A DNA stretch of 64,000 nucleotides from the NCBI RefSeq assembly GCF_023343835.1, contig NC_064447.1, positions 10,932,501 through 10,996,500 of the forward strand, written 5' to 3'. The position numbers were made by a program, and so were the translations under genes. The first letter of the stretch is position 1. The number at the start of each line of letters is the position of its first letter. Below the pieces are notes generated by a model that saw only the letters and a program-made list of their open reading frames with translations, was not told the origin of the DNA and ran no database searches. Positions 105-41,518 of the stretch are shown piece by piece. This stretch comes from Lagopus muta (taxonomy: Eukaryota > Chordata > Aves > Galliformes > Phasianidae).

Positions 105-10820
<10,716 letters not shown>

Positions 10821-18050: not shown

Positions 18051-18054
18051 TACG

Positions 18055-18160
18055 TTGAGAACACACCTGTTTTCCTCATCTCTTTTCCACACCCTTTTCT
18101 GCTCTAGTAAGTTCATGGCAGATGGCTTCAAACACGAGCTTCAACTTCCGTAGCTGTTCC
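18055..18160 (-). pseudogene. MYH16: Possible MYH16 remnant exon: C-terminal rod (tentative)
   Basis: One frame reads EQLRKLKLVFEAICHELTRAEKGVEKR before a stop, and an overlapping frame reads NLLEQKRVWKRDEENRCVL. Either could be the last light-meromyosin segment (VHELDDAEERA or ERRLKELVFQTEED). Position fits, but the alignment is ambiguous. Confidence 0.4.
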
Positions 18161-18404
18161 TGAGCCACTGACATGGTGGAAGAGAAGTTTGGCACTTGGG
18201 TATCTCTCCAGAAGCGAGCCCTTTGCTGGCTGAGGATTCCTGGTGTGCAGTTAGAGCTGATTTGGCCGTTCCACCCCTTTCTTCTGCCATCTAGTTTGTG
18301 TATGGTCTTCCTGTACTTGGACAGGCTTTGGTCATCCTCCTATTCCTGGACCAGCAAATATTTAACAAGAGAAATGTTTGCACTGGAAAAAAGTGTCTTA
18401 GGAT

Positions 18405-18539
18405 ATGTCTGATGTGATCCTTCAGCAGATTCACAAGATACAGTTATGTGATGAAGCATTGAGCAGGAGATATAAACAGCTGCTTCAATTCTCAATGTTT
18501 TCAGTTCTGCAGCTTCTCCAGCCGTTCTAGTTCTGCACA
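18405..18539 (-). pseudogene. MYH16: Probable MYH16 remnant exon: distal rod
   Basis: Acceptor CCAACCAG, then CAELERLEKLQN and a stop; after a shift ELKTLRIEA and later AEGSHQT. Compatible with IKELETELDGEQ, KTLRKNERR and TEEDHKT. Heavily decayed. Confidence 0.55.
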
Positions 18540-19179
18540 CTGGTTGGTTTTGTTGTCATCTTTTATGGAAGATCACCTCCTTTAGAGGCTTCTTGTGCAG
18601 ACTGAAAATTCTGCAGAAGAACGTCGTGTTTCTATTTGGAGGATAGCTCTGTATCCATTACTTAATCTGAAAAGGAACAGCAGGATACACAATCACAGAA
18701 GGGATTTGAAATGTTGATATGAGGATCAGAAAAAGAAATAGGAAGATGGTATCTACCCCAGGAGTTTGGAGATGCTCATGCTCTTGAGTTTTGTTGCAAC
18801 ACAAAAATAAAGGGTAAGTCCTGCCACTGCTGATAGTTCACTTTGCAAGTTCTCCTTTGTGGGTGTAGATCAGCTGCTGATACCAGTAGCTTGTTACTGC
18901 TGTATTCAAGCACCGTGAGGGTTGATTGATATGTTTTGCTCAGGGTGCAGAGAGCTGGAATTCCCTTGTGCTCCAGTGGACTGGGAGCATCCTACAAGCA
19001 TCTTTTCTGCCCAGTCTGGTTTTCCTCAAGTTAGTACATTTCTTTTGGTACATGTTAACTGTTATCTGAAATGGGATGTTTTCATTTAGTTTTGTTGAAT
19101 GTGGAAGATCAGGTGCAGGAAGGAGTTTTGTAGTTGCACAAGTCTACTAGAAAGCTCATTCCAACCAAGCACGTTTTTT

Positions 19180-19343
19180 CTTATCCTGGAGTTTCATGGT
19201 AGTTTTTTGTCTTTCCAGGGCTGACTACTCAGCCTATTCAATTTTGATTTACAGATCTTTACAATTTACTATTTCCTTAATATTTGCCAGGTGCGTGTTG
19301 TGGTTCTGCTCCTGACGCAGCTCTTTTGCCACGCAGGAGGCTT
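19180..19343 (-). pseudogene. MYH16: MYH16 remnant exon with three in-frame nonsense codons
   Basis: Acceptor CTTCCTCAG, then ASCVAKELRQEQNHNTHLAN, IKEIVNCKDL, stop, IKIE, stop, AE, stop, SALERQKTTMKLQDK. It aligns without gaps to the MAEELRQEQDH..IKDLQ..MEEAEQLALKGGKRTIMKLEA segment. Each stop replaces a Gln or Glu codon by one substitution. Confidence 0.93.
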
Positions 19344-20900
19344 CTGAGGAAGGTATGGAACAGATTGACAGTGCAGCTATTTGTACAGGGTATTGAAAAG
19401 TAGGATGTGTAGACCTGGATGCTGCCCTCTGAGAAAATTTGCCTTATCTTTAATGTTTCTTTATCATTGGCTGCCTTTCTAAAGATTGGATCCAAACTGA
19501 TGGAGGTAATCCCAGCTGACTTGGGCAGCGCTAGGTCAGACCATAAACCAGGTGGTGGTGTGCTTGCTTAATACTTTCAGAATACTCAAAGGTATTATCC
19601 CTATCTGTTAAGTCAATAACTTTGTTCTAGTAACATTTCAGGCTTTGATGTCCACCCTTCAGTGGAAAAATGTGACTTGGGGGCGTGCAGTGGATGGAAG
19701 GTGAAGATATTGTCTGAAGGTGAGGTAGCCTTAAACAGAAAGGCAGGACACTTATCCTTACTTGAGGAGGAAATGCTATGCATTAAACCCACATCTAGCT
19801 TTGATACTTGAAGTGTCAGCTGTCAGCACAGTGCCAATGGAGCAATCTGCTCAGTACTGGCAACTTTTCTCTCCTCTGTGCCAATGACGAATGTCATTGA
19901 CTATCTAGAGAGGGAAACTAGCCTCCTCTTGTGTTGGAGACCTGGTAAGTGTGATGGGTGGAGCTGTGGGATAAGTGGAAGAAAGGGTAAAGAGAGAGGA
20001 AATGGAGGAATTCCTCAGGGTGCCATCTGTCGTGTAAATTACCAAAGAGACAGAGGGAAAGTAGATTCCTTCTTCTGTGGATTAATTTTGCCAGACTGCA
20101 GTCGGTGAGCTAACAAGCATGCTGCTTTTCAGGATTGTAAAAAGCAAAGCAAGTGCTAACATGTTATTAACAGTGTTCTTCCAATAGATGCAGGAGGGAA
20201 ATGCTGGAAGCCTTAGGGTGTATTTTCCATTTACCAATATAAAGGGCAGAAGGGTGGAGAGGTAACTTGGATCAGCCACAACTTTCTTTCCTTTCTCATC
20301 AGCGTTTCAGTGCTCAGGGATGATTTCCTCATGCTTGTTAGTAGTGTGGTAAAAATCAAGGCAGATTCTTTCTAGAAAATAAAGGAGTCCTGGATTCCCA
20401 GAATGTTAAATGCTCACCTCTGGGGCTTCTGTTTGTCTCATTAAGTGATTTGTGGATTAATTTTCAGTAGCTTATTTTTCTCTATAAAATTGTGCACTAC
20501 TAAGTCAACTGGGATTCACCCCCACTGTATCTGTGTTGTGGAACATTAGGACCTCTGTATTTACCTTAATGCTAAATGAAAGCTAAAATGATGATGCACC
20601 TCTGAGGCAGAAATAGACCCTGTTGTTTACAAAGTCCTCGAGTCCGAGTCTGTTTTGCTGGATATCTGTGTACATGGATTTGAGTATATAAACCAATATT
20701 ATTTATTTCAAAGTTAAGCTGCAGTAGCAGCAGCTGGCTTTAGACCTGACTGAAAATGTGTTTGATTGCAATCTCAACAAACAAATATAGTCTCTGCTCC
20801 AGAATTTACAATGTGTGTCTTTTTATCTCATGGAAAGTGTGAGCTCCATGGCTTGTTTAGTGCTTACTGATATGAATCACTGGAGGACTCTTGTTGCTGT

Positions 20901-20938
20901 AAAAAAAAAAAAAATAATAATAATAATAATAAAAAATA
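20901..20938 (+). repeat. A-run with (TAA)n microsatellite
   Basis: Fourteen A followed by about six TAA/ATA units and another A-run. Likely an old retroposon tail or simple repeat within the pseudogene's intronic space. Confidence 0.9.
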
Positions 20939-21854
20939 AGCCCCACTCTAAGGAAGAAGAACTACAAGGGCTTTAATAGGAAGACTGCATTCTAACAGCA
21001 CACTGCTCTTCAGCAGGACATCAACTAAATGTACTGTTGTGTTCTACAATGCTGCATAACTTCTGTGCTATATAGGTTTTGTATTAACAAAGCTTAAAAC
21101 TCCAAATTTGGTATGGAGGTTGCAGTTTACCTGCTAAAAATGCATCTTTAGTCACCAGTCAGTTGCAGGTAAATGTATTGTTTGAGTTTCTAACCTATTT
21201 GAATAACAGCTGCGTTTATGACTCAGTTCTTGTAACTGATGTCCCAGAATTGCAGCTGAGAAATGCTTCTCGTGGTGCCAGTCCATTCCAGAACTCGTAT
21301 TCTTTTCCTTGCAGATGTTTGTATGTGTGGTCTATCCTTCATGGAAATGAACTGCAGACTGTGGTGAATTAACATAAACAGCTCCTTAGGTCTGTGCACG
21401 GAATGAAATGGCAGCTATGATATTTCATACAACGCAAAGATGCCTAAAATTTCACTGAAGTAGATGTGGCTGTGGGCTGCATTCCATGGAGAAGTCCCAG
21501 CACCATGGAAACAACTGACAAAACTATAGTTTCAGTGCAGGCAGAATTTAATACTGCACTTTTTAAGGCAGGTTTTCAGGAGTGCTCAGCACTGTCTTAC
21601 GTCTTCCACCAAATCTGCTAGGCCTTGCTAGGAGCAAAGCTGAGCCAAGATAGTCCAGACTTTGTTTAAAATAGATAAAAGTCTTGCCATCCATCAGTAT
21701 AATTATTCTAACGACTGAGCCCTTCAGGTTCCACAGAATTTCCTTATAGAGCAGTGTTACATTTGTCCATTATTGGCCTAATCCTGCCCTTCCTACTCAA
21801 AGTTAAGGTTGAGTGTTAAACCACCTGCATGTAAACTGTCACAATAGCTCTTGC

Positions 21855-22040
21855 ATAAATAACCTCTGTGCATAGCCATTGTTTTCACTATGTCTCTCCA
21901 CTCTGCAGGAGTTTGGGAAAGCACCCACTGCTCTCTGGGCATTCTGTGCTCCTTCCAGTTCTGTCAGTAGTGTTCTGAGGAGTTGTTCCTGCAGCTTTGC
22001 TCATGCTGGTAAGCATCTTCATCCATTTGAATCCAAACAT
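21855..22040 (-). pseudogene. MYH16: MYH16 remnant exon: rod
   Basis: Reads VWIQMDEDAYQHEQS, then after a shift KLQEQLLRTLLTELEG, and later ERHSENNGYAQRL. These fit DLQVQMDEDARQHEE, LLQTELEE and ERHNEVNIQNQSL in order. The frame is broken at least once. Confidence 0.8.
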
Positions 22041-22750
22041 CTCAAAAGCAGGTGAAAGAGAAAATAATGAGCAGAGAAGAAGCTGAAAGATGTAGGAGGT
22101 CTCTTTGCAAGGCTTTTCTTTCAGGTGTTGCCAGATTAAAACAAAACAAAAAACAGAACAGAAAAACAGTGCTTTATCCAGCTATCATTTGTGCCTGTGT
22201 GCAGTCATTGTAGCCACGTGCTCTGTGAGAGGCTCTCCTGACTGAGACAGATGTAACAGAGGACAGTTAGGCTGGTGTATGTGTATGCACACACGAGGGG
22301 GGAGAGTCTTGTTATTCTTTCAGTTACTGAAATTGTATTTTTGGCAGCAATGTATTACTGTTCCAGCAGAGTTTAGCTTTGTCACTCTTTTTCTGAGTTT
22401 TCCCTTCTGGAAGAAGTGCCAAAGGAAGCTCTGTGCTTTTACTCTCAGTGAGGTCCTGGTCAGTTTTGTGGCTGTGCTGATGCAAACAGCCCTTGTATGT
22501 GATCAGAACAAAAATGTGATTCTAATTTGAGAAAAGCTGATAGTAATGCTTATCTTGTGTAAGGTTTGTTGGAACTGCTGCAGATTGAAATTGGTGTGAG
22601 TGGGAGAGCTGGGACTAATGAATATAAATTCTCAATTTATTCAAGTTGTCTAAACAAGAGTGCATAATTTATTACTTTGTTGCTTAAGGTGTAGGATAGA
22701 ACTGGCACGCTTTTTTATTCAGGGTCCTGCTTGCACCTTCTGCAGTTTAG

Positions 22751-22935
22751 CTTGACATTCTGTTGCAGTTGATTCAGCATCTTGACAAGCTCATTATTGT
22801 CACTGTTGGCACAATCCCCTCAGATTTCCATTTTGTCTGAGTCTGTTTCACCTCAAGCTTGGGAGTTTCAGCATGTCCTGTTGATTCAGTTTCCAGACTC
22901 ACCTGTGGAGACTCAATTGCATGCTGGTGATTTTC
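22751..22935 (-). pseudogene. MYH16: MYH16 remnant exon: rod
   Basis: Acceptor CACTCTGCAG, then ENHQHAIESPQVSLETEST and GHAETPKLEVKQTQ; after a shift DKMEI, stop, then ANSDNNELVKMLNQLQQNVK. Matches NHQRAIESLQASLEAEAKGRAE and HANKNNSELVKTL. The donor after AAG reads CTAAAC where GTAAAC is expected. Confidence 0.92.
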
Positions 22936-23339
22936 CTGCAGAGTGCAGTGAAGCATATGGCACAACATTCTGTTATGTTGAATCTAATCCAGCCTTTGTA
23001 TCAAATTATTGCTCACCAAGTAATAAAAACAGTCAATTTCTAAGCCTGTTTTAAACTGAGGTACTAAGATTTTGCACCAAACTATGACTACTTTATTGTA
23101 AAACATAGGGCTAGGAGAGCTTTCAAGAAGTCATCTTAAAAATCTATTTAAAGTGGGGGTTATCTCTGTTAAACCAGGGCGTGTTACCAGACTGTACTTA
23201 ACTTCCAGTAATGGAGGCTTCATGATCTCCAGACCATCTTGTCCCAGGAGTGATTCCCCCTACAATTGAAAACTTACCAAGTGTTTACCTTAAATCTTGC
23301 TGCAGTTTTGGCGTATAACTTAATGTCATATTGCTACAC

Positions 23340-23420
23340 CTGATTATTTCAGATTCTTCCTTCTTCTGATCTCTATCTAGTTTCAGCTCTAACCTGAAGC
23401 AGTTCAAGCTGAGTGCAAAC
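23340..23420 (-). pseudogene. MYH16: MYH16 remnant exon: rod
   Basis: Acceptor CTCCTTACAG, then VCTQLELLQVRAE; after a shift LDRDQKKEESEIIR. Corresponds to IRIQLELAQVKADIDRR and the following EEEFEATR. A GTGTAG donor is present. Confidence 0.85.
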
Positions 23421-23561
23421 CTGTAAGGAGAGGTGCAGCAGAAGAACAAACAAAGGTGCTCTGTGGGATTTAAAGCACAGAATCTACCCGGTGCAATGTG
23501 GGCAAGCAGGCATCAGGCCTGCATGCAGCACTCACATCTGTGGCACTGGTGCTTCTAGGGA

Positions 23562-23686
23562 AGGCCGTTTCCTCCAGTGCCACCTGCAGTTCATCCTGAT
23601 CAGTCTTCAATCTTCTTCTGCAGCTCGTGAACGCGGTGCCCTCTGTTCCTCAGCTGATTGATTAGATCCTTAATTTCCTCCAGGGA
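23562..23686 (-). pseudogene. MYH16: MYH16 remnant exon: rod
   Basis: Reads SLEEIKDLINQLRNRGHRVH then ELQKKIED and a stop; after a shift DQDELQVALEETA. This matches EEIKELIDQLGEGGRSVHELQ and EELQVALEEAE. One frameshift interrupts the exon. Confidence 0.92.
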
Positions 23687-24324
23687 AGAAAACGGATATT
23701 TCATGTGGTAGGTTTATTTCAGGACTGTGAACTTTACCGAGTGTGCCAAACAAATTCTTTGAATAGGAATGGTGTGAAATGGCTCCATTCACTTCACATT
23801 AGCTGCCCTTTTTCTCACTGCTAAATATTATCCTGGATTTCTGAATGAGCCCTGCTGGCTCTATGTGATCATGGAGGCAGAAGAGTGAAGCCCATTAAAT
23901 CACGAGAAATTTTTTCCAGTTTTTAGCCTAGTCTTTTCCTCTCCTATTTTCAGATGGTTGCTCATACAAAATGAAAATAGGATTCCACATTGTCTCTATG
24001 CAACAGAATGAGGCACTTTGCCAGGTGATGTAGGCCAGAGTAAAGGGCTGGGGGAGACAGCCCAGGAAGTGCTGGGTCTCTGCCAGGGACTCCATCACCA
24101 TTTTCTCTTGGCTGCAGGGACAGCAGATTCTAAATCTGCATCTTCTAAATATTGACAGTGTCATCTTTCAGCCTCTTGGAGGAGATCAATTTTTACAATT
24201 TACAGAATATTTTTATTTATTAAAAAAAAAAAAAGCCAAGGCAGCTTGTCTCCCTGTATAGCAAGTAAGGGAGACTCAGGGAGTTCAAGTGACATCCTTG
24301 CAACTGATGCCTGGAGATGCCTCA

Positions 24325-24440
24325 TTCAGTCATGTACACTGCTTCTGGAAATATTCACTTCCACCTGTAGCTCTTTTCGTGTTGCCATTCTGCCAGCATC
24401 TTCTCAAAGGCTCTCTCCTTCTTCCAGAAGCAGCATTGGC
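24325..24440 (-). pseudogene. MYH16: MYH16 remnant exon: rod
   Basis: Acceptor TATCTTTCCAG, then ANAAS, then after a shift WKKERAFEKMLAEWQHEK, then after another shift ELQVEVNISR and finally YMTE. These are signature pieces of the DKKQRVFDKMLAEWQ, ELQVEVDSSQ and YMTES segment. Confidence 0.9.
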
Positions 24441-25354
24441 CTGGAAAGATAAAGCCAAGCATTCAGTGGACACAAGTTTTCTTTACACTTCACTTCTCTG
24501 TGTCCTGCCAGCTAGTCACAGTTAAATTGGCACCCACTGTAGTGACTGGCAGAGTTTCTCTTGGTTGCTCTGAATGGGTGATTAAAATGTTTACAAGGCT
24601 TTCTTTCCTCACCATTAGGAATTTAACAAGCTCCCCCAGTTCCCATCAGTGTGATAGTCCTCCTTGCTCCTGCTGTTATAATGATGCTGCTGTGGAGCAC
24701 ATGTTTTCCACTTCAGATATTCGTGGTGCAGATGTGCTGTTAGTAATTGCCTGGGTTGATTAGTGTGACTTTCTGCTTCAAAGAAGATTCAGTTAGAAAC
24801 AAGATGTTATTCAAGGCTATTCCAGACTGTTTAATGGCTTGTCATGAAGGGAACGAAGGAACATTTTTTCTTTCCTGGGAGCTTTTAATCACAAATATTC
24901 TACGTATTTTTATGATCAGTACATGCAGTCAGGTACCATGGTGATAAGCACGCCACAAACTGAAGAGTAAAGAGCTGCTTCATTAAAGGCAGTGATGGTG
25001 AAACAACCCACTGGTACTGCAACGCTGGAGAGTTCAAAGCAGGATCTCATTATCCTTAAAAAGACAATGAATACCTTGCCTTGCTGCTGAGGAGGGCTTT
25101 TACTTCAGTTGCACTATTGTTTCTGGAAGACAGCTAATGAGTTTGAGGAGCATGCTGCGTGCTCCTAAGAATTAGCTGTGGCTCAGCTTTGCCTGTCTTC
25201 TCTTGGTCATACAGATTACAGTGACATTTGATAGAGAGTCTTAAAGTATTGAGAAATAAGGGATCAGCCCATAGCTGGCTCCTGGGGCTTCCACCACCAA
25301 GTCTTGCTGCTCAGGCTTGTGGTAGATGTGTTCTTGAATGGCTGAATTTCTTGC

Positions 25355-25478
25355 CTTTCCAGGTCAAGAGTGAGGTGCTTCACTTTGGTCTGAAGCCTCT
25401 GCTTAGAGCTGCCTGTGCAGACTTGGACTGATTCAGCTGTCTGCTTCGCTTCTTGGAACCTCCCAGCCAACTTTGTCC
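25355..25478 (-). pseudogene. MYH16: MYH16 remnant exon: rod
   Basis: Acceptor ATTCCTTAG, then TKLAGRFQEAKQTAESVQVC and SKQRLQTKVKHLTLDLER, matching KLAxRLQEAEETAEAAQ and KQRLQAEVEDLTIDLEK. The donor is GCAAGA (GT to GC). The frame is open for 124 nt, close to the usual exon size. Confidence 0.9.
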
Positions 25479-26287
25479 CTAAGGAATGGGGGCAGGAATA
25501 ACCCAGTAGTTCATGGAGTGAGGAGTTCTGGGAGTCAGCAGCAGTCATCTCCTTGAGCACTATTGCTGTTTTCACCAGTAATCCCGAAAGCAATCTCAGA
25601 AAAGTGACTGTAAAATCATGACTAGGATGTGGCTGGCTCTTCCCCTCCCCAGATACAAACACCGTTCTGGACTGCAGCTCAGTTCCTCATTGCTGGGTTG
25701 TTACCTGGTGTTAGACCCTTCCACTTTCTGTTTAGGAATCTCCAGGACAGCGATAATGTCAGTGTAGCTCCACTCCCTGTGACTGACTATGGGACTCAGG
25801 CAGAGATAGAACAGCTTATTTTGTCTCGACTTGTTTCAGGCACATGGTTAAAGCCCTCCAGGTGCCTTAACTTCTCTTTCTGCTATGTGAAAGCACCTCT
25901 GTTAGCTCTGCTAGAAAGATAATGTTAAAAGACTGCCTTAACTTCTTGCCCACACCAGATCTCAAGGAGCAGATTTCAAGGGGTTTTAATCTGATTCGGG
26001 TGCATTCTTTTTTCTCAGGAAATGCTAGTGGCTTTTGTAAGGCTGCTGGAAGAGTAAAGTTCCTGTTGGAGTAAGGAAAGGCTGTCCAACTTCAAGCCTT
26101 TACTGGAAAGGTGCAGCATTGGTTTGCTGTTGCCAGCATAAAAGAGTTAGGTCTCAGTAGTCCCTATTATTGCAGGTGTTCTTCTTGGTGGGAGTATTCT
26201 CTTTTCTTTGTCTTACAAAAATGAGTCTTAACAGATCACATCTACAAACTGTGATCCAGCAGCCAAAATGAATAACAGAGTACCCTA

Positions 26288-26420
26288 AGTCTTCTCCCTG
26301 AAAGCTGTGATTTCAGTACTGAGTTCAGACCAGACGCCAAACTTCAATTTTGTTCTCTTCCTCCTCTTCCAACTGCTCTTTCATCACCTCCAAATGATTC
26401 CTGGTGTTAGCCAGTCTTAC
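26288..26420 (-). pseudogene. MYH16: MYH16 remnant exon: rod
   Basis: Reads VRLANTRNHLEVMKEQLEEE and then EENKIEVWRLV before a stop. After a shift it reads EITAFREKT, corresponding to the LANTKHDLDLVKEQLEEE and TEVTTWRTKYE parts of MYH16. The LANT motif is an MYH16-type marker. Confidence 0.85.
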
Positions 26421-26984
26421 CCCAGCAGCAGTACAGATGAATTTGATTGATGTGGATGAATGGTAATGGCTGCACTGTTCTCCTGTTGGAAGTATGAAGG
26501 CACTGACCTCACTCCCCCAAGCTGCAGTGCTCCTCTTGAGCAACTTAGCTCTGGACTAGCTAGAAACATTTCAGAATGTCTTCCTGGTCAGGAGCCAAGT
26601 GCCTGCTCTCCTTACCTGTTTTGCTGCTGGGTTGTTTTGTTTTGTTGTTTTTTTTGCTGTACTGCAGTGAATTGAATTGAGCTCATATAACTGAAAGCAG
26701 AACTTGGCTTGTCATCATCACTGTTTTCTCTGAAAGTGTTTCAAAAGAATTACAGCAGTAAACCCATTTTGTGATTGCTCTGAACGTGGAGAATTCTTGC
26801 CAGGCTTTTGATATGCAGGTGCAGCTCTAGAATTATTCTTTGGAGATAAGAAAAATTTCCAGGACAGGCATGTCAGACAGAGACATGAAATGCTGATACA
26901 TTTTGAGTCAGACATGTGTGACCTATGCAAATAAACTGCAGTGCAATCCACTGAGCAGTGGACTGAGAATGAGGAGGTGTACAC

Positions 26985-27030
26985 ACCTCTGCTCTTTGCT
27001 TCTGGCTCATGAGAGGTTATCTTCGTATCC
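26985..27030 (-). pseudogene. MYH16: Possible MYH16 remnant exon (tentative)
   Basis: Reads DTKITSHEPEAKSRG, spaced like the conserved ENSELSREYEESQSR segment that should follow the upstream exon. Only about 15 residues support it. Confidence 0.4.
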
Positions 27031-27527
27031 TCCATAAGAATCTCATGATGCTCACGCCCTGTGTGCCCTTACCAAGATTAGCTGGTAACAACCCAGAGAT
27101 TTAGATGAGGAAAACTTTCCCTTGTGAGAGCTGAAAGAATAAGAGATTTGTTGAAGTGGACAGTGAGCAAAGAGCAGGCAGAGCATATCCTACTCCAGCA
27201 GCAAGCTGTGAAGGTGCTTAGTGGTCCCCAGTACCCTTAACTTTTCATCTACTTGCCTCTTGGGGTCATATACTTCATGTGGACAACCTAATTAATCTCC
27301 ATCAGACCTTGTGCTCTGTGCTCAGCTGGCTGCTTTCAGCTGCAGGAGAAAAAGTGCACAGAGAGGCAGGAGAGGAACTAATTCCACCTGATTGAAGAAA
27401 GAAGAGAAGACTAGAAGGATTGGGCAGTATTGGTAAAGGAGGCAGAGCTGCCAGAGTTCTGTGGAACACAGGGGAAGAGAAGGATCAGAGGGCTGGTGAT
27501 GTTGCATGCAGCTATCAGGGAATTTAC

Positions 27528-27639
27528 CTTGGAGCCCAATGGCATTCATTTCAGCTGGGCTTTTCTCCACCTCAACCAGCTGGGCATTGGCTTCAGACAG
27601 GTTATCTTCCAGCTCGTGAGCATAAGCAACGGAGTTCAA
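27528..27639 (-). pseudogene. MYH16: MYH16 remnant exon: rod, open with both splice sites intact
   Basis: 112 nt with a CTAAC branch-like motif, TCTAACAG acceptor and GTAAAT donor, all consensus. It reads LNSVAYAHELEDNLSEAN then AQLVEVEKSPAEMNAIGLQ, residue-for-residue like MYH16's SLSEANAKVAELER region. It appears to lack two codons near its end. Confidence 0.92.
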
Positions 27640-27829
27640 CTGTTAGAATGGTTAGTCATAGGATGCTGAGTAAGGCTTGAAGTGCTACAGTATCCTCCCT
27701 CCCCTGCACACTGAGTTTATTCCCGTTGGTTGTAGGTATAATGAGATGACTGTAGCAGGCAGGGACAGTGCAAATTGTTCTGATCTATAGAGAGGAGAGA
27801 TGCCTGTTTCATTAGCTACTGTGGGCAGT

Positions 27830-27905
27830 GTTTGGCATCAGCCTGCAAATGGCTGCTCTGCGGTATCAGCTGGCTCACATCTGCCTGGTGCTGTGGATCT
27901 TGGTG
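27830..27905 (-). pseudogene. MYH16: Probable MYH16 remnant exon: rod
   Basis: Acceptor CTTATAAAG, then HQDPQHQADVSQLIPQSSHL, comparable with the KKHxDSMAELTE segment. The exon boundary after KK is where myosin genes place one. Moderate support because the match is short. Confidence 0.5.
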
Positions 27906-28394
27906 CTTTATAAGAAAGGCTTCTGCAAGGCTTTTATTTAGCCTTCTAGGCTCTTTATCTGACTCATATCCATCTTTGGTGCTACTGTGCTGCAGGGTTA
28001 GCATCTTTCAGAACAGTTAACCGTCTCCACACCTCATTGCTAAAACTCACAGTTGTTCTTTGGACTGAAGATCATGTATTTCCCTTGCAAAACAGCAGAA
28101 AATAGACTGAACAGTTCTGCTTTATTTTTAACTGTCTGTGTCTGAATTGGCAACTTTCTAACAAACCTCTGATCAGTTCTGCTCAACCTTAGAGGAATGG
28201 CAGAGCCCCCAGCCGATTCGTGGAGCCTTGTGGGTTTCGTGTTTTTGTTGTTTTGGTTTGTTATTTATTTATTTTTAACTCCTTCCAAGGTCCACAGCGT
28301 GAGGGGAAGATTGGGTCAGGTCTGCCCTGCTTAGGAGCCTAGAGAAGCTGCTGAAGAAACTTCTATGGAGAGTCCCAGTGATGCCTCATTCTCT

Positions 28395-28525
28395 GAAGAA
28401 AGAACCAAGATGTTCAGGTGTAGCTGAAGGTCTCTGGCCTGGGTGCAGCTGTTGTAACACCGGTGTCTTTCCAAGGAGTCGAGATCCATAAGATCACGAG
28501 GCAGATCCCTTCCCTGATTCTCCAC
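28395..28525 (-). pseudogene. MYH16: MYH16 remnant exon: rod
   Basis: Perfect acceptor CTCTTTCCCACTAG, then VENQGRDLPRDLMDLDSLE, which parallels VEKNRSDLSRDLEDLSDRLE. After a shift it reads DTGVTTAA, matching the conserved EEAGGATSAQ. Frame is lost afterwards. Confidence 0.85.
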
Positions 28526-29049
28526 CTAGTGGGAAAGAGGGAAAGAAATTCTTATTCCCTATGAGGAGCCCGTGAGTGCTTTAAGGAGCACTGCTACTTC
28601 TTGTCACTCTAGCTGTTTTCCTGGCTGCATGAGGTGTCCAACACTGACCTAGCTCCTGATGTGGTTGAGAATTGGCTAGCTAGCATTTGTAGACTGAAAT
28701 GGAAATGTTAGTTATTATTAAATTATATTAGTCATTAGATTGCGTTCAGAGCATTCTATTAAAATATTAACTTTTTGGATCTCAATTACCTTCAGGACTT
28801 CCCGTTGTTAAAAGATCAGATTATATACCTAACATCCGCATCCCGGCAATTTGCAGAGGATTTATTAGAGTAAATCTACCACCGTAGAACTGGACCAGTG
28901 GGTGGGGTGGCCTAATGGGTGAAACACAGAGGGCTGCCAGCTCTCACCAGCCTGCTGCACCCTGGCTCTGCATAGGGCTGCCCCTATGGCTGCTTCTGAG
29001 GTTTCTGTGAAAGGAGCAGCGCTCCCAGTTTGTAGCACTAAGTCTGCAT

Positions 29050-29150
29050 GGGCTGAAACTAGAGCTCGAGTGTCTATCTTCCAACTCTTCCATGGGGAGT
29101 TTTGTTTTTCATTAGCAGTTGAACGCCTTTAGGTCTTTTCAGAAGTAAAA
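29050..29150 (-). pseudogene. MYH16: Possible MYH16 remnant exon (tentative)
   Basis: A weak match KTKLPMEELED followed after a shift by TRALVSAHA could be the IEELEEELEAERAMRAK region, which is expected exactly between its neighbours. It is too short and damaged to be sure. Confidence 0.35.
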
Positions 29151-30842
29151 TCACTCCCCAGAGAAGCTCTTTGTTTCTTAGAAAGACTCTGTTATCTGTG
29201 CTCTCACAGCATTCCTAGCTTCTATCTTTCCTTCCAGCCCTTCAGTATAAGGGCCTGGAGGGTGCAGCAGAAACACAGCAGTGTCTCTGACTGAGAGATG
29301 CAGGATAAACTTGTGTGGATACAAACGAGCCTCTATTTCTTCACTCCCTCCTACGTGCTTGCCAGGTCTACAGGATTATTTTTTCCTGGGAAAGGCCTAC
29401 AGCTGGGAATACTTAGCCAAGGAAACAGGAAAGGTGTGGCCATGTGTCTCAGTAGTCAACTGGTGTTATGTGCAGCATCAGTAGCTTGCTCTGTTGTGTT
29501 GGAATCTGGCAGTTGGGGAAATAATGAAGCTGATTTGGTTACTTGAGGGAAATAGGTGCTTGTTCATAGAAACAGCTGCAGACCCAGGTTTGTGGGTCAT
29601 GATGTTGTTGTAGAAATACTGAGGCTTTGATTAAGTATTCAGGCACCGAAATATGCCAGCTGAAAAACATTTGCTTTCAGAATGGCAGCACTTTGAGCTG
29701 TGCTCCCATTTTTGGTTTTATTTACCACCTTCCCTTCTGTGGTGAGTGGAGCAGTACCTTGCAGGAGCTGCTATAGGGGGAGACAAAAAGGCCAAGTTCT
29801 ACATAGGGAAAGACAAATCCCATATCTCAACTGGTTCTGTTGCTTAAAAGTGTAAAGAGAGATTGGCTCCAGAATCCATTTTATCAGGGTAGGTTTAAAA
29901 GGTCTGCGTTGTTCTTCTATGCACCTCAATCTTATCAAAAGATAAAGCTGCATGAGCAGGCTGCTGTGTGTTAAGGAAAGGAAAGTTACCTGACGTGTTG
30001 CCTCTCTGTAGCAAACTGGTTAATCTTTGTTCAGAGCAAAGCAGAACCTGGTGTCCTGTCTCTGGCCCTAGAATCCATTTGCCCTTTGTTGGAGCTCTTT
30101 GTTGCCCCATCATCAGCTTGTCTGTAAGTAGAGGTGCTGGCACCCCGAGGAGCTGGATGGTCTGAAGCACAAACATCAGCACTTCATGCTTTTGTTTCTA
30201 TCTGTGTTTAAGACTTCCAATGGCTCTGCTCTAAAGCACAGGTAACCTGTACTCACTAAAAGCTTCCTGTTAGGATTTGTGTTAGCAAATCATGCCAGTG
30301 TTTATTCATGGTTTTACATGTTGTGTTAGGCAACCAGATAGATCAGCAGTTTGGATAATATAGAGCTGTAAATATGTATTCTGCAAGGCTTATTTCTATG
30401 GGGAGGTTTGTCAGAAGTGCTGGCAGACCCATCACAAAAGTAATTGATGATGACACTAAAATAAATTTAATTTGTGATAATATTCTGCATTTCTAAAGCA
30501 GTTTTTATCTGAGGATCATAAGGCCTTGCATAAACACAGAATCAGTTAATCCTCATCACTTCCCAGTGATCATACACGCTTTATACGTGGGTGACTGTGG
30601 AAGATGAGTGACAAATATCAGACAATGAGTCAGAGAAAAACTTGGGAACAGAACCATGTATTTCTGATTTGGTTTACCTGAGCAGCTGAACTGCACTTGT
30701 GCTTGTCATTGTGTTACTCCTGACAAGGCCAAGGCATGACTGTGGATTTTCCTTTGTGATTTCTAGTTCAGCAACTTTACAGGTGTAGCTGATGCTGTCA
30801 GAGCTGTGATGTAGCACAACTGCCCTCAGTAGGATTCTGTAC

Positions 30843-31011
30843 CCTGGAGAATTCCCTTAATGTTGCCACTTCTTTGCAGTGCCTGCCAAGATCAGTTTGG
30901 TTCCATCTCATGGAGGTCATCAATTGTAATTTTGGGGTCATCTCTGCTTTATGACAACGCTTCTCTGCCTTACCATGGATGTTTTCTCATTCCCAGTTGC
31001 CCTCCAGCTAA
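30843..31011 (-). pseudogene. MYH16: MYH16 remnant exon: S2
   Basis: Acceptor CTTTTCAG. Reads LEGNWE, stop, ENIHGKAEKRCHKAE, then after a shift DDPKITIDDLHEME, then after another shift NQTDLGRHCKEVATLREFS. This follows MYH16's WEQEKK and DLKMTIDNL segments. There is one stop before the first frameshift, and a plausible GTACAG donor. Confidence 0.82.
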
Positions 31012-31623
31012 CTGAAAAGCGTGGAATCAATGTTATCAATAACTCTGAAGCACACAAATCAGCAGTGGGTGTCAGAAGGGCCTGAAGTTTCAAAAGCAGA
31101 CTGCATGGGACCATTGAAGAAACAGTCAGTTGTAAATACACCCCATGTGTGGTAAGTTTGCTGCTGTTCCTGGCAGTGTGGTTTACCGCCTCTTCCTTCC
31201 CTTGCAGTTTTCTAGGAGGGGAGACACCAAGGCTGGTGCATAGAAGTGGATAAGAAACCAACACTGTCCTTAATAAACTGAAAATGAACAGAAAAATACA
31301 TTCATCTGAGGTGCCTCCTGAAAGCAACGCGAGCTTTGAATGTGCATTTTTCAATAGATCTCAGGGGACTGAGTCCAACACGGAGTGTTTCAGAAGAATG
31401 TAGCTCACTCTCAGCAATTCACATCGCTCTCTGGGCAGGGGTACAAATTGGCAGCACTTCACTGTGCTGCCATAAGTTAATACCTAGAAAAACACAGCCG
31501 CCTTCCTGTTTGTGGAGCAAACTGTAGTCTCGCAGTATCTAAGCAAGCAGACAATGATTTTTTTCTTTCTCCCAGACTGGGAGAATGGGAGAGAGCAAAG
31601 AAAAATGGAGTAGTTATTTCTGC

Positions 31624-31728
31624 CTGATGAACTTCCTCCAAAGCTCTCCTTTCCTTTTGGAGTTGAGGGACTGAGTCATTCTGAGCAGAGAGATCTGAAG
31701 TCAGAGTTTGAACTCTGTGGTCTAATGC
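31624..31728 (-). pseudogene. MYH16: MYH16 remnant exon: S2, fully open
   Basis: 105 nt, intact frame: ALDHRVQTLTSDLSAQND then SVPQLQKERRALEEVHQ. The acceptor is excellent (TTTCCTGTCTGCAG). The donor is GCAGAA where GT is expected. Phase 0 follows the KTEKEKQ exon directly. Confidence 0.92.
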
Positions 31729-32376
31729 CTGCAGACAGGAAAGCAAACATCACACAAGTTCTATGGATCACACAACCAGTTTGCAGCATCAGGACAAAAT
31801 GTCAGTGGCAACGTCTGTTACTTTAGAGAGAATCTGAGATTCAGTTAATAAATTCTAAAATCTGTGAGTTTGATATCCTGTGGATGTTAATGCTGACTTT
31901 AGGAAAGCAGCAGGCAGCCATGTGGCTGCTACAGCGCAGATTGAAAACTTCTCTAGTTACGTTAAATAAAAACCTGCTTAAGTGCAGGAGAGGGAGAAGC
32001 ATTCCTCAGAGCTGGATGGAGAGGAGCTGTGTAGCTGTAGAGGAGGCATTTTGTAAGTAGACCTATCAGTATTGCCATGTAGCGGTGGGTGTAATTAATA
32101 AAGAATTAATAAAGAGGTGTTGCTGTCTTTACGTAGAGGGATCCCTAGAAATTACTGTGAAATTAATATTACTGCCAGGGTAGAAATAAAAAAGTGAAGC
32201 ATAGAATTAAATCCACCTCAGGTTGTATCAAATATTGGAAAACAGTATCAGAAAGTGGAGAAATGAACTGAGTGAATCTGAGCATCCCAAAGGGTGCTCT
32301 GGCAGGAGCTGTAATGGTTGTCAGGGCTCGTTTCCTTGGAGAATGAGTAAGAAAGAACTTCTGTCGTGCCTCATAT

Positions 32377-32544
32377 CTGCTTTTCTTTCTCAGTTTTAGG
32401 CAAAGGTGGTCTCCAGCCCTTTCAAGCAGAATTTCAAGTTGCTGAGCTCGTCCTCCAACACCCCTTGGCACTGCTCAGGGCAATGCTTCCATCACCAGGC
32501 TCTGGCTCAGTAGAACTGTCCATCTTTGCTCTCATCATTTGGCC
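32377..32544 (-). pseudogene. MYH16: MYH16 remnant exon: S2
   Basis: Reads GQMMRAKMDSST, then SSAKG, then after a shift VLEDELSNLKFCLKGLETTF and after another shift KTEKEKQ. The order and content match S2 of MYH16. The donor after CAG is ATATGA, which is a GT to AT change at 32376-32375. Confidence 0.87.
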
Positions 32545-32690
32545 TGGGCACAGCTCAGCACCCAGCAAGTTCTCTCATTCCTACTGAAGAGATGGGAATC
32601 CAGTGTTCATCCTGCATACCTGCTACACCTTCTGCCTCTGGGAGCAGCAGGCCTCCATTTGCAAGAAGTGGGTTTGCTGCTTTTGTGCAG

Positions 32691-32750
32691 TTTATTAAAG
32701 ATTTGGGGTTGGATTAAAGATTTATTAAAGATTTATTAAAGATTTGGGGG
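32691..32750 (+). repeat. Short tandem repeat, TTTATTAAAGA units
   Basis: An 11-12 bp unit (TTTATTAAAGA) recurs about four times, interrupted by TTTGGGGTTGG. It lies directly before the CR1 tail. Confidence 0.8.
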
Positions 32751-32812
32751 CTTGGAGATTCATGATCCTTGAGCTCCCTTCCAACCTCGGCCATTCAGTG
32801 ATTCTGTGATTT
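32745..32812 (+). mobile_element. CR1 LINE tail fragment
   Basis: Reads CTTGGAGATTCATGATCC and TCCCTTCCAACC, then ATTCTGTGATT, which is the terminal part of a CR1 3' end in plus orientation. It is about 70 bp long and sits between two myosin remnant exons. Confidence 0.85.
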
Positions 32813-33224
32813 CTTTAATAAAACTGTTGTTGTAATTGATCTGAATCTCCAGGTCACCCAATGTTAAGTCTCCAGCCTCCCAGTGTTAAGCACAAAGCAG
32901 TGAGTTTTGTTTAGATACACATACATCTCCTTACCATAAGAACTCACTCTTCAGCAAGTTGACACCTGATTTGCATTACTCCTAGCTGGGCATCAGTGGT
33001 TGACCAGAAAGAGAGCTCAGGACTCATGAGAGCAGCTCTGCTTCTTTAGCCATGGAGCCTCTCATTCTCCTGTGTTCTAAGAACTTAACTGCATTTAAGG
33101 GAGTCAGGCTGCCTGTGAATCTTATGCATCATCCCCATATGCTCTTTTTGCTTTCCAAATGAGGCTCTTATGAAACCTGATGCTCTGCCTAACTCAGTGC
33201 TAAGCCTTTAACCATCCGCTGTTT

Positions 33225-33393
33225 GTAGCTGTCAGCGTGCAGCTGGATGGTGAGGTCATTCTCCTGGGTGAGGATGCCTGTCAGCTCCTCTGCTCTTTGA
33301 TGTGTTCTTTGCACCCCTGACTCTGTGGCATGATGTTACTTAGCTCTTCAATTGCAGCTCTTTCTGCTGGGCCACATTCAGCAAAGATTTCAC
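33225..33393 (-). pseudogene. MYH16: MYH16 remnant exon: head-rod junction and start of S2
   Basis: After acceptor ACTTCCAG it reads VKSLLNVAQQKELQLKS and a stop, matching the VKPLLNVARQEEEM-type start of S2. After a shift it reads IEELSNIMPQSQGCKEHIKE, then in another frame AEELTGILTQENDLTIQLHA. At least two frameshifts are present. The lower boundary is approximate. Confidence 0.88.
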
Positions 33394-34403
33394 CTGGAAG
33401 TAAGGAGTTCAAGCAGTGAGGTTCCTAAAACAAGCTTTTCCTGCTGTGATGCTCCACAAAAGCTGAAGGTGTGCCTTTTCTTTCCAGATTCTAATATTTT
33501 TTTGCACACCAGTGAGTGGTGTTGTGGCATTTCCTGAAATGCCTCTTTAGAACAGAGGATTTCATATCTATAGTGTGAGTCAAGAACTGGGAAAGGTTAT
33601 TTTGGTGCATCGTAGGAGATCTGAGTGCCAGCATAGAAACTGGGACTGTATTCCAGATTCTGAGCTGATATAGATGTAGCATCATTCTCAGAACATTCTA
33701 GATTCAGAAGTTCTAATCCCATTTGAACCAGTATGAAAGTTCTTCTAATGTATGGGAGTTCATTTGGTTTGCTCTGGAGCTGGAAAGATGTGTCCCCAGG
33801 TAAAAAGGCAGAACTTACGTGTGGAAAATTGCCTTCAACATGAATTTATTTCCCTTAAACTTGAGCCTCTTGGTCAACACTTCCTTTCCTCTCAGCAGAA
33901 ACCCATCTGAATTACTCATCCTGGGATTCAGTGAGGAGAGGCAGAGCTGGAACTGCTCCTTCATACTGGCAGTGTGGATCTGCTCCATACAAGTGAACCA
34001 ATGGCTCTGTTTCAGCTTTTAAAAGTCAATGAATAGCATAGGGTTGTATTCCCATGCTCACAACATCACCATCTCTTTCTGTGTTGTTTTAGAAGTGGGA
34101 AGTCCAGCTCCTGAATTCCTAAGTTGTTCCTTTTCCGCTCCCCAAGGCTCAGATTTCAGGGCTTTCTCCATTTACTCATTTATTTATTTCTGCATTGATT
34201 TGGAGAGAAATCATTCAGCCCTCCTGCCCTGTTAATAATTCACAAGGAATCCGCTGTCTGCCAATGTCTTTACTCAAGTGAACGTGGCCATTGGTTTTCT
34301 CCCACTGCTTATCTTCCCTACCCAGTAATCCCAAGTTTCTCACTCTCTGTAATGGCCACTGTTTAATTCTGCAGAACCAGACAACCTGAGATATTTTCCT
34401 CAC

Positions 34404-34499
34404 CTTACTGCACAATTTCCACCTGCCTCGGAAATGCAGCTGCAGAAACTTCTGGACATTCCTCTGGCTTGCCAGAATATGCATGCCTTGCAAACAGCT
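34404..34499 (-). pseudogene. MYH16: MYH16 remnant exon: IQ/neck
   Basis: 96 nt, open in phase 0 throughout, with acceptor GGAAACAG and an intact GTGAGG donor. It reads SCLQGMHILASQRNVQKFL and then a W-containing end KLCSK, like the second light-chain-binding segment (QRNVRKFL type) before the rod. The next exon begins in phase with it. Confidence 0.85.
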
Positions 34500-35184
34500 C
34501 TGTTTCCAGGCAGTGTGTGAGAGGAGCTCCGTGTCCATCCCTAATCATGCACTACAGCACGCTGCAGTCAGCGTAGTCTAAATAAAAGGGAGTTGGCTCT
34601 GATGCCCCTCTGTTCTTTGGCCATGCAGGAGTCACTGCAGTTTGTGGACATAGGGAAAGGGATGGCAGAACTGAAGCTGTGCTGCTGTGAATGTAGAAAT
34701 GGAGATTTTCATGCACTGGAAGAAGCAGCTACTGCTGACAAAGAGGAAACTGGTGGAAAAGGTGCTTTTTTGCACCCCACTGTCAAGCTGTGGCATTGCT
34801 CTGCTGCAGGGACCCACGGTGTGAAAGCAGGGAAGATTCGTGCCTTGCTATTTACTGGAATGGAGAACTGGGAAGTCCTGGTTTCATTTCATGGTTCTTG
34901 CTAGTCAATGAATGCCACGAGTGCTTGGTCTGTAATACTGCTGTAGTTTCACAGAATAGGCTCTGATTTATTCCACAGGAATGCCTTCTTTCCAGCATCC
35001 TTTTTCTCCTCAGTGCTCATCAGGAAACCATAGGAATGACTTACAGTGTGGCCATGACCTTTTCTTGGGGATCATCTCTTGTGTCTTCCAGCATGGCCAG
35101 CTTACCAGCACGGAACATTGCCTTGGCTGACAGCACTCTGCATACATTTACAAACAGGATACATTCTGGGGAGGATAAGGGAGC

Positions 35185-35496: not shown

Positions 35497-38400
35497 AGGA
35501 GTTGGATTGGGCCTTTTCTGTTCCCAAACTTTCTAGCTATGAAAAAATACCAGTGGTTAGATGATAAGAGCAAGCCAGCATCCAGCAAAGCAGGACCAGT
35601 GACCTTTTTGGTGATGAAACCCAAATACACCTTGTGCTCTGTTGTGGCAGGAAACATGCTGGTTTCAGTAGTGATGGGAAAAAAGCAACCTGGTGGCTGC
35701 TTAAGAATAAGATGAGGGGTTGTCTGTCCCACTTTAATCTCAATTTGTAAGTTAAAAGTTAGGGATGAAACAGTCTGAAGGCGTGATGGATATTGCATAA
35801 TAATTGTAGAACACAGGAAATGCCGATTTCAGGTCCTTTCAAAGAGCAGGATGCTTCCTTTGCTGGCTGTTGCAATAGATATTCTCATTATGTTGTGACA
35901 AAAGCATATGTGCAAATTGGTGATATATGCTGCTAACATCAGACAGCTCCAGCAATCTCTCCCCATTTTCCTTTCCAGTCTTAAATTGGATCAGTGATCA
36001 GTTAGTGGGATTTTTGCCTGACTAAGGAATAGGAAAGAGCAAGTGAGATTCATCACATAGCTCAAGGTGCACTTCATTTGCACTATATTAGCTGTACTGT
36101 CTGATTAAAAGCCAGGGTTGGGAACACGTGTAAGAGAGAGCATCGTATGCATGAGGAAGCGGGTTGCTGTAGAAACTCTTAACTCGGCAGCTCTGCACCA
36201 AAGACGTGCTGAATCATAACTGCCAGCAATTTGCTTGGCCCTGTCTGATAGGAGCGAATGGTGTCGTGTCCAGTTCTGTGCTCCTTCTGCCCCGGGTCAG
36301 CAGAGCCAAGCAGCAGCCCTGATGGCTTTTACTGCTCACCGACCCCACAGGGGTTATGCTGGGATTCAATCTCTGACATCTAAAATGAGAACAAGGGGTA
36401 CGAAGATGAAGGAGCTGCAGTTAGCAGCGGCCCAGAGGGGCATTTTGGGTCTCACAGGCACCCAAGGGTGTTTACAATGATGCCAGTGACATCAGGTGGT
36501 GAAGTTTCGATCAGAGCACAGCACCCTTCAGTCAGTTCTGTAGTGCTGAGCTCGGGCAGCAGCACCAGCCAGCCCTGGGGGCTGTGGGAAGCCGGGCAGG
36601 CAGAGCTGCTGCTGGCTGTGGGACACTGGGGGCAGGGTGCATGCAAAGGATGGATGGTTGCTAACCCTGCACGAGTTGGAGGTGGTCACAGAGAGGATCC
36701 CATCTCTTGCTGCCAGCAGCTAAAATCAGTTCCATCCCACAGAAGATGGGAGGGAGGCTCCTGAAGAGGAGTCACACTGCAGCGGTGTGCTGCAGCCTCC
36801 AACATCCGTCTGTCTCATTGGACTTATGTTAGCAGCCCAGTCCTGCCCAGGCAAACTGCTCAGCCAGCAACAACCATGCATCATTTCACTTGCATCCTGC
36901 TTGGAATCTGAGGTTGGTTGGTTGTTTTTTAGGAAATTCTCAAAGCAGAATTGAACTCACTCCTTGGAAAATATAACAGGAGAGAAGAGCAGCTGCATTC
37001 ACAGCCATGTGTTGGCACACACAGGTTTTGTGCTGAGCCCACCTCCTTGCTGGGAAGCTGGTGCTGCTTTCTGCATTTCGAACGGACTGAGATGGAGATG
37101 TGCAAAGTAGGAATGGGATCTGACCGTATCTCTTTGATGGCTTTCTCCTACACCGTTTCCTATTCACCTTCCAACCACAGAGCCCTGAGTTGAGCTGATG
37201 GCAATCCTCATAAGCAGTAGGTTTTTTTTCAGGCTGGTGGAAAGTTGACATTTTTCTGGGCAGCAAACGGACACTGACTGCCGGGGGTGATGCAGCTTGT
37301 TGCTAAGCCAGGACGGCACTCTGCTCCCATCTGTGCACACAGGTCTCTGCAGCAGCACTTGGTGGAGCCTTCACTGAGCCAAGCGAGCGGCGTGCCTTCC
37401 TTTGTGCTGGAGGGGCACGTTTGCAAGGACAGGGCTGGAAGCACACACAGGCTGTGAGCTGGGCATGAGCAGCGTCACACTGACAGCCTCACGCCTTGGG
37501 ACCTTTGCCCCAAGAGAGGGATTGTCAGAGGAAGGAATGTCACAAGATTCTGTTTTCACCTTTTAGGCTCAGGCTTTGGTACTCTGACAGGGGACAACAT
37601 GGCTTATAAGCTGGTGCAACCAAGTGCAATCAGGGTGTGCCAGCATAACAACACTTTCCAAAACCTGCTTGGAAGCAGGAGAAAATAGCTGCTAAGTGTA
37701 AAAAAGATAGAGCAAAGGGCCACGATCCATGCTCCGATCGCGCTCTGTGTGTCTGTGCAGTGGAGTGGTATGAATAGCTGGTGGAGATTGATAATATGCT
37801 TAAATACTGCTCCTGCTGCTGGGCATTAGCATGGCTGCTTGGCAGCACGGCAGAGGCAAGTCATGCACACTGGGTAAGGCTCGACAGGCCATGGGGAGCT
37901 GCAGGGCTCTGGCTCCTCCAGCAATGTGTCAGCAGCAGAAGCAAAAACGCATTTAATCCTTTGGCTGCTGTGCCTTTGGGGGAGTTTTCCTGCGGCTTTG
38001 TGTTACAGGAAACAAGCTGTGGCTTGAGTCTGGGGGGTTTTGTTCCTTTTCAGGCTATCTGGAAGGATTATATTTTTAACAAAGGCGGTGGTAGTGCTGA
38101 GGAGTCACGAAGCTGCCTCGCTGTTCTTTGTACATTCAAATGCCCAACAGTTGTGTCACCATCAGGCGATTTGACAATCAGTGTTTTCTGTTGATTGTTA
38201 CTGAAAAGGATCTCTGAGATGCACATTTCTGGGCGGCAGAGCCAACCTCTGGCTGTGCTGCTTCCTTAAGGCACAGAGATACATCCATCTGCAGCAGGGA
38301 AGCACTGCTCCCAGCACCACTGCAGGTGTGAGGGGCTTTGGGTCTCAGCTCTGTCCGGCCCAACCAGCTGTGATGGCAGCTCTGCCTCTCCAAAGCACAT

Positions 38401-41394: not shown

Positions 41395-41460
41395 TGTAGA
41401 AGGGATCTTTAAAGACCATCTGGTCCCATTCTATGCACTGAACAGGGAGGTCTGCAGGTG
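41395..41460 (-). mobile_element. Short CR1-like fragment (low confidence)
   Basis: GTAGAAGGGATCTTTAAAGACCATCTGGTCCC resembles, in reverse, the CR1 3' segment. Only about 65 bp remain, directly before the AGGGA array. Confidence 0.45.
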
Positions 41461-41518
41461 TTCAGAGCCCCCCAGCCAGACTGCAGGGAGACCCTGGGGA
41501 AAAGGAAAGGGAAAAAGG

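What the first reader, a model, noticed from the sequence alone, without database searches (positions are those of the whole stretch)
18055..34499. A bird MYH16 unitary pseudogene preserved exon by exon between ARPC1A and KPNA7
Seen: some fifteen minus-strand segments translate to successive pieces of a MYH16-type rod in correct order, most at good acceptors, and many with frameshifts or stops. Known: MYH16 is the jaw-muscle myosin, located between ARPC1A and KPNA7 in mammals and inactivated in humans by a different lesion. Inference: this bird lineage lost MYH16 independently, perhaps with the change of jaw musculature that came with the beak. I do not know of a published description for this locus.
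Basis: partly seen in the sequence, partly recalled or inferred. Interest (0 to 1): 0.88.

Follow-up and report, generated by a model that had tools for sequence, protein, structure and literature searches.

The report
Ancient wreck of bird jaw myosin
In what is probably a grouse, the gene for the powerful jaw-muscle myosin MYH16 survives only as a long-dead wreck at its expected place in the genome, so a motor protein that crocodiles and many mammals use to bite was lost in this bird's lineage, probably very long ago.

Summary
A frameshift- and stop-tolerant spliced alignment to a sarcomeric myosin profile scores 338.6 on the minus strand between ARPC1A and KPNA7; ten shuffles average 46.0 (max 57.2), the plus strand gives 66.4. 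Read the same way, four sarcomeric paralogues give 0 stops and 1 frameshift; the more distant MYH11 gives 1 and 6 in 1686 codons. A CR1-like repeat (name recalled) splits a motor exon. Identity is alike to all sarcomeric paralogues tested; two well-supported introns are absent from them; pieces of it (185 aa) hit nothing else below E 0.05 in the genome. Best reading: a unitary MYH16 pseudogene, probably of Lagopus muta. Decay resembles 0.25-0.40 neutral substitutions per site, about 65-200 My, so the loss probably predates Galliformes. The beak link is untested. I saw no bird MYH16 pseudogene described, in listings and passages only.

The parts
105..10820 (-). ARPC1A exons (flank, downstream of the pseudogene, same strand)
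   Evidence: tblastn with recalled human ARPC1A: 8 pieces, seven at 81-100% and one at 66% identity; 179 aa joined from them match ARPC1A best in PDB, 401.5 bits vs 326.9 for ARPC1B
46112..51193 (+). KPNA7 (importin alpha of the KPNA2/7 type), flank, head-to-head with the pseudogene
   Evidence: tblastn with recalled human KPNA2; designed armadillo proteins and importin alpha in PDB; the KPNA2 gene proper lies on C21 at 92% identity, this gene has 71% over the same 92 aa
40213..40261 (-). motor exon piece, MYH7 residues 268-284, one frameshift
   Evidence: acceptor just upstream p 0.030
40050..40189 (-). interspersed repeat, CR1-like 3' tail ending in ATTCTGTG repeats (CR1 name recalled), inserted in the motor exon between residues 284 and 285
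   Evidence: 2282 first-look candidates in the own genome, 40 scored: the window itself and 39 others at 78-85% identity; tail motif 8 times in the window vs 0.39 expected
39976..40038 (-). motor exon piece, residues 285-305
   Evidence: 59% identity over 22 aa
38522..38649 (-). motor exon, residues 339-381, one frameshift
   Evidence: acceptor p 0.029
36266..36369 (-). converter exon, residues 725-760, one frameshift
   Evidence: acceptor p 0.017
34984..35124 (-). neck (light-chain binding) exon, residues 762-808, two frameshifts
   Evidence: no good acceptor at its start, p 0.45
33225..33402 (-). S2 rod pieces, residues 833-850 and 871-898, one frameshift
   Evidence: sub-region 39.2 vs 20 shuffles 18.3 sd 3.4, max 27.5
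31624..32458 (-). S2 rod pieces, residues 943-968 (one frameshift) and 970-1004
29199..29260 (-). rod exon, residues 1111-1130, one frameshift; conserved acceptor at 1112 (p 0.005); the place expected for the extra intron's donor reads CAG|AT
28444..28525 (-). rod exon, residues 1132-1159, one frameshift, starting at an extra acceptor absent from the sarcomeric paralogues
   Evidence: acceptor score 12.5, per-position p 0.0003; four paralogues uninterrupted over 1113-1242
27547..27633 (-). rod piece, residues 1199-1226; possible further extra intron near 1196
   Evidence: acceptor weak, donor-like site only nearby
26291..26390 (-). rod piece, residues 1341-1374, one frameshift
25340..25473 (-). 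LMM exon, residues 1392-1438, one frameshift; conserved acceptor p 0.009
24342..24440 (-). LMM exon from an extra acceptor at 24440 (about residue 1435) to residue 1472, two frameshifts
   Evidence: acceptor score 11.8, per-position p 0.0004; MYH7B- and MYH15-like genes uninterrupted over 1391-1506, the other two split at 1451 only
23339..23680 (-). LMM exons, residues 1507-1546 and 1562-1587, one frameshift each; first starts at a conserved acceptor (p 0.014), second ends at a conserved donor (p 0.035)
   Evidence: a 92-aa reading matches striated myosins in PDB, best E 2.4e-11
22751..22932 (-). LMM exon, residues 1589-1604 and 1619-1651, one stop; conserved acceptor p 0.006
20271..20330 (-). 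LMM piece, residues 1742-1761, one stop
19203..19332 (-). LMM exon, residues 1765-1810, three stops and one frameshift; conserved acceptor p 0.021
18258..18339 (-). C-terminal rod exon, residues 1887-1915, one frameshift
   Evidence: sub-region 30.3 vs 20 shuffles 16.0 sd 1.9, max 19.9

Best explanation
The stretch is the remains of MYH16, the ancient jaw-closing (masticatory) sarcomeric myosin heavy chain gene, in its ancestral place and orientation between ARPC1A and KPNA7 of a galliform bird (probably Lagopus muta). It no longer works as a protein gene: frameshifts, stops, a repeat inserted in a motor exon, and exons beyond recognition leave no open path for a heavy chain. How it came about: constraint on the gene ended in an ancestor, after which substitutions, indels and an insertion accumulated at about the neutral pace, over roughly 65-200 million years by simulation. 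Shown: collinear exons, lesions, neighbours, no second copy found in this assembly. Inferred: orthology with mammalian MYH16, the age, the species, and that this bird's jaw closers use other myosins.
For: Collinear score far above shuffles and control stretches. 22 segments in order with 17 frameshifts and 5 stops in 650 codons, 17 of the 22 segments hit, about 1 lesion per 30 codons. Controls read by the same method: four sarcomeric genes of this bird 0 stops and 1 frameshift (these genes are in the profile), a simulated undecayed gene at 62% identity 0 and 1 in 1899 codons, MYH11 at 45% identity 1 and 6 in 1686 codons, about 1 per 240. Introns kept; 8 of 14 conserved acceptors recognisable. 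ARPC1A and KPNA7 flank it, and HECT exons on the same contig at 11020556-11023839 fit SMURF1 beyond KPNA7 (name and mammalian order recalled). Identity 45-48% to MYH7 and four own sarcomeric genes, 33% to MYH11. Two well-supported extra introns; MYH16 is said to have five (PMC6402096 section 14). A genome search with 185 aa of its pieces finds only this locus below E 0.05; the best outside hit is a known MYH locus at E 0.0565.
Against: No genuine MYH16 sequence was on hand. The tree does not place it firmly: it falls beside MYH11 with 43% support. The positions of mammalian MYH16's extra introns could not be compared. The reading was guided by a profile made of the same paralogues it is compared with, so identities and retention are biased upward. 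The method makes some false lesions in a distant intact gene (MYH11). Donor sites are not enriched, 1 of 12. Residues 1-267 and 382-724 are not detectable. The two Pfam searches of the genome list no match in the window (47 tail, 115 head matches), and I did not assign every listed myosin locus to a named gene. PMC6402096 says in general terms that orthologues of the three ancient myosins were found in species including chickens (passage); it details this for MYH7B and MYH15, not for MYH16.
Confidence: 0.92

Rival explanations
1. A decayed duplicate of another sarcomeric MYH (fast, MYH7B, MYH15 or cardiac) that landed here, not the MYH16 orthologue.
For: The tree does not exclude a relation to MYH7B/MYH15; identity to the MYH15-like gene is nominally highest, 239 of 498.
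Against: Identity to MYH7 and the four own sarcomeric genes is 225-239 of 498, no clear excess for one. A gene duplicate would carry its parent's introns, but two well-supported introns here are in none of the four. The place and strand are those of MYH16 (recalled).
Confidence: 0.05
2. The loss is recent and confined to grouse or Galliformes, so other birds keep a working MYH16.
For: Only one bird genome could be examined; fast local mutation or large deletions would mimic age.
Against: Score and retention at invariant residues (0.63) match simulated neutral decay of 0.25-0.40 substitutions per site; at 2e-9 to 3.9e-9 per site per year (quoted in PMC2946954, passage) that is about 65-200 My. 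The repeat in the motor exon is 15-22% diverged from the 39 other copies scored.
Confidence: 0.25
3. The locus has been taken up for another task, such as a non-coding RNA or an enhancer of a neighbour.
For: None seen; transcription and conservation across birds were not testable here.
Against: No Rfam match in the window at gathering thresholds, which says little about lncRNAs or enhancers.
Confidence: 0.03
4. Chance coiled-coil-like translations, no gene relic.
For: Rod sequence is low in complexity.
Against: Motor and neck exons also match, order is strict, and none of 10 shuffles, the opposite strand or the control stretches comes near.
Confidence: 0.002

Closest known systems
Human MYH16 pseudogene
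   Same: Loss of the masticatory myosin gene in its ancestral place
   Different: Human copy is young, inactivated by a two-base deletion in exon 18 (PMC6402096 section 14); this one has lesions in 17 of 22 segments, an inserted repeat and exons beyond recognition
MYH16 pseudogenes of pangolins, anteaters, armadillos and echidna (PMC12906968, passages seen)
   Same: Loss with many inactivating mutations, linked by the authors to reduced chewing
   Different: Mammals; for echidna dated to about 20 My; MYH16 of birds not mentioned in the passages seen
Tooth gene loss in birds (mentioned in a passage of PMC12906968; start of the abstract of PMC3562159 in a listing)
   Same: Decay of feeding-related genes in the bird lineage
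   Different: Tooth genes, not a muscle motor

Membership tests
MYH16 orthologue (masticatory myosin heavy chain) | Sarcomeric class II myosin heavy chain, motor plus long rod | tested here: met
   Collinear motor, neck and rod exons; 45-48% to sarcomeric, 33% to smooth-muscle-type MYH11
MYH16 orthologue (masticatory myosin heavy chain) | Place between KPNA7 and ARPC1A, same strand as ARPC1A (mammalian order recalled) | tested here: met
MYH16 orthologue (masticatory myosin heavy chain) | Branches outside all other vertebrate sarcomeric MYH | tested here: inconclusive
   Nearly equal identity to all sarcomeric genes tested, but tree support 43%
MYH16 orthologue (masticatory myosin heavy chain) | Five introns that other vertebrate sarcomeric MYH lack | tested here: inconclusive
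   Two well supported at 1131/1132 and about 1435, one weak near 1196; mammalian positions not available. A fourth candidate at 284/285 proved to be a repeat insertion
MYH16 orthologue (masticatory myosin heavy chain) | Expressed in jaw-closing muscle | not testable with these tools
   No RNA data
Unitary pseudogene | Unprocessed: introns kept | tested here: met
   Segments spread over 22 kb, 8 of 14 conserved acceptors recognisable
Unitary pseudogene | Disabling lesions | tested here: met
   17 frameshifts, 5 stops, one repeat insertion; controls far lower per codon
Unitary pseudogene | No working copy elsewhere in the genome | tested here: met
   Search with 185 aa of its pieces finds only the window below E 0.05; one assembly only, 31 candidates scored
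Unitary pseudogene | Working orthologue in relatives | not tested
   Masticatory myosin protein reported in crocodile and lizard jaw muscle (PMC11050549; PMC7542809; passages); no reptile genome held

The most novel reading that the evidence does not exclude
MYH16 died before the radiation of living birds, in Cretaceous or earlier bird ancestors, so that all living birds close their beaks without the masticatory myosin that crocodiles, lizards and carnivorous mammals use; the wreck is a dateable molecular mark of the rebuilding of the avian jaw.
Probability: 0.5. Interest if true: 0.68.

Novelty: new member of a known kind. Interest (0 to 1): 0.52.

Why it matters
MYH16 loss has been debated in humans and described in several mammals. 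A bird case, probably old enough to predate Galliformes, would extend the story to archosaurs, where crocodiles are reported to keep the protein. It makes the timing of bird jaw-muscle change testable: shared lesions across birds would date the loss against tooth loss and the beak.

Tried and rejected
An apparent extra intron at residues 284/285 was rejected: it is an interspersed repeat in the exon.

A special likeness to invertebrate striated myosins, seen for one exon (tarantula E 2.4e-11, Myosin-4 E 4.5e-7), did not hold over the whole: Myosin-4 134.9 and Myosin-7 124.0 bits against 79.3 for the best invertebrate chain, much the same proportion as in the MYH7B-like control (641.9 against 345.4). 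That comparison leans to vertebrates because the reading was guided by a vertebrate profile.

Loss of the partner light chain MYL5: 17 matches, at C3 (two neighbouring genes), C19, C20, C23 and one distant hit on C1, none assignable to MYL5; other light chains were not told apart, so inconclusive.

Further motor exons: residues 1-267 and 382-724 not above shuffles. Exact-position splice tests gave 2 of 17 donors and 4 of 19 acceptors, not significant (unsplit borders were included); the test with a splice matrix and a tolerance of 4 bases, at segment ends only, is (14 acceptors, 12 donors).

Rows dropped: in the lesion count 22 of 34 traced segments were kept; 11 were shorter than 15 codons and one lay at 12254-12210, outside the gene's span. 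One search kept 23 of 34 because it still held that stray one.

Simulations fit the score but not everything: at like scores they show more recognised codons and more invariant positions (310 or more, against 228 observed), as if whole exons had been deleted here; that would make the age estimate too high.
Full report
What is there. The window is C18:10932501-10996500 of a genome of 1,026,658,476 bases in 165 contigs. The rock ptarmigan assembly has 165 scaffolds and 1,026,771,810 bp (PMC10320755, passages), and a lysozyme exon scores best, narrowly, with turkey (118.9 bits against 117.1 for the next). So the bird is probably Lagopus muta; this is an inference and the totals are not identical. 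ARPC1A lies at 105-10820 on the minus strand. An importin alpha lies at 46112-51193 on the plus strand; as KPNA2 proper lies on C21 at 92% identity and this gene has 71%, it is taken as KPNA7. HECT exons at C18:11020556-11023839 fit SMURF1 beyond it (the gene name and the mammalian order are recalled).

Is it real. tblastn with human MYH7 from memory already shows 11 hits in order on the minus strand, of 13 in all. I built a profile from MYH7 and five own-genome MYH genes and a spliced alignment that allows stops and frameshifts. On 10900-46000 minus it scores 338.6; plus 66.4, reversed 59.3 and 64.8, ten shuffles 46.0 sd 4.1, max 57.2 (intron penalty 16; penalties 11 and 20 agree). Twelve stretches scored alone show the signal only in 18000-36000 minus (265.8) and 36000-46000 minus (90.3); the other ten give 31.5-54.6 (profile refined).

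Anatomy. Of 34 traced segments, 22 of at least 15 codons lie within the gene's span, in order: 650 codons, 17 frameshifts, 5 stops. They cover MYH7 residues 268-305, 339-381 and 725-808 of motor and neck, and pieces of the rod to 1915. Residues 1-267, 382-724, 1005-1110 and 1661-1741 do not exceed shuffles. The same method on four sarcomeric genes of this bird gives 35-40 pieces each, 0 stops and 1 frameshift in all; on the more distant MYH11 it gives 1 stop and 6 frameshifts in 1686 codons. So some false lesions occur, at about 1 per 240 codons, against 1 per 30 in the relic. A stretch at 40189-40050, one of 2282 first-look candidates genome-wide (40 scored), splits a motor exon between residues 284 and 285; its tail repeats look like CR1 (recalled).

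Which myosin. Over 498 shared positions identity is 233 to MYH7, 234 fast, 225 the C23 cardiac-type gene, 236 C19 (MYH7B-like), 239 C1 (MYH15-like) and 166 MYH11 (paralogue names rest on place and recall). It is sarcomeric and not clearly nearer to any one member. A tree leaves its exact place open (43%). The four sarcomeric genes have no intron within residues 1113-1242; within 1391-1506 two have none and two have one at 1451. Yet the relic resumes at strong acceptors at residue 1132 (28525, p 0.0003) and about residue 1435 (24440, p 0.0004). MYH16 is described as having five extra introns (PMC6402096 section 14). With place and strand this makes MYH16 much the best reading. A genome search with 185 aa of its pieces finds only this locus below E 0.05, so no second copy is seen in this assembly. 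Two Pfam searches of the genome list no match in the window at all: the relic is too decayed for them.

Age. Random MYH16-like genes (55-68% identity to MYH7) were decayed in silico and read with the same method: 8 runs and 20. The observed score of 351 falls among runs at 0.30-0.40 substitutions per site, and the retention of 0.63 at invariant residues among runs at 0.25-0.35. With 2-3.9e-9 per site per year for chicken and turkey introns (quoted in PMC2946954, passage) this is about 65-200 My. Weak points: unknown starting identity, assumed indel ratio, one lineage rate, and no large deletions in the model; the runs recognise more codons and invariant positions than the relic does at like score, which hints at such deletions, and these would make the relic look older than it is.

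What it means. Masticatory myosin is reported in shark, crocodile and many mammals (PMC11050549, passages) and in lizard jaw muscle by antibody (PMC7542809, passages), so loss on the bird side after the split from crocodiles is the simplest history. Whether all birds share it, and whether the beak has to do with it, cannot be told from one genome.

Print check. Searches listed all their papers (17, 17, 3); searches listed only the top 20 of 667, 20 of 1,562, 10 of 17, 5 of 3,494 and 40 of 89. No listed title treats MYH16 in birds. Passages seen of PMC6402096, PMC11050549, PMC12906968, PMC10300182 and PMC6558913 do not tell of its loss in birds; PMC6402096 says in general that orthologues of the three ancient myosins occur in species including chickens, with details for MYH7B and MYH15 only. 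Two papers on genes missing from birds, PMC4290089 and PMC12954441, hold no word beginning with MYH or myosin in the main text. Most subscription papers are not held, so this is no proof that it is unpublished.

Noticed in passing
G000:C19:9096979-9381520 (outside the window): HECT-domain exons repeated mostly every 10.4-10.7 kb: 26 listed places for the last part of the profile, in a truncated list. It looks like a long tandem array of HECT-domain genes.
   Followed up: no
window 40050-40189: CR1-like repeat tail inside a former motor exon; seven further, weaker tail-motif matches in the window.
   Followed up: partly
G000:C3, C19, C20, C23: Genes like regulatory myosin light chains found with a recalled MYL5 query; no clear MYL5, the masticatory light chain. 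Inconclusive.
   Followed up: partly
window 18258-40261: Former acceptor sites are still recognisable (8 of 14) while donor sites are not (1 of 12); it may be an effect of poorly extended exon ends.
   Followed up: no
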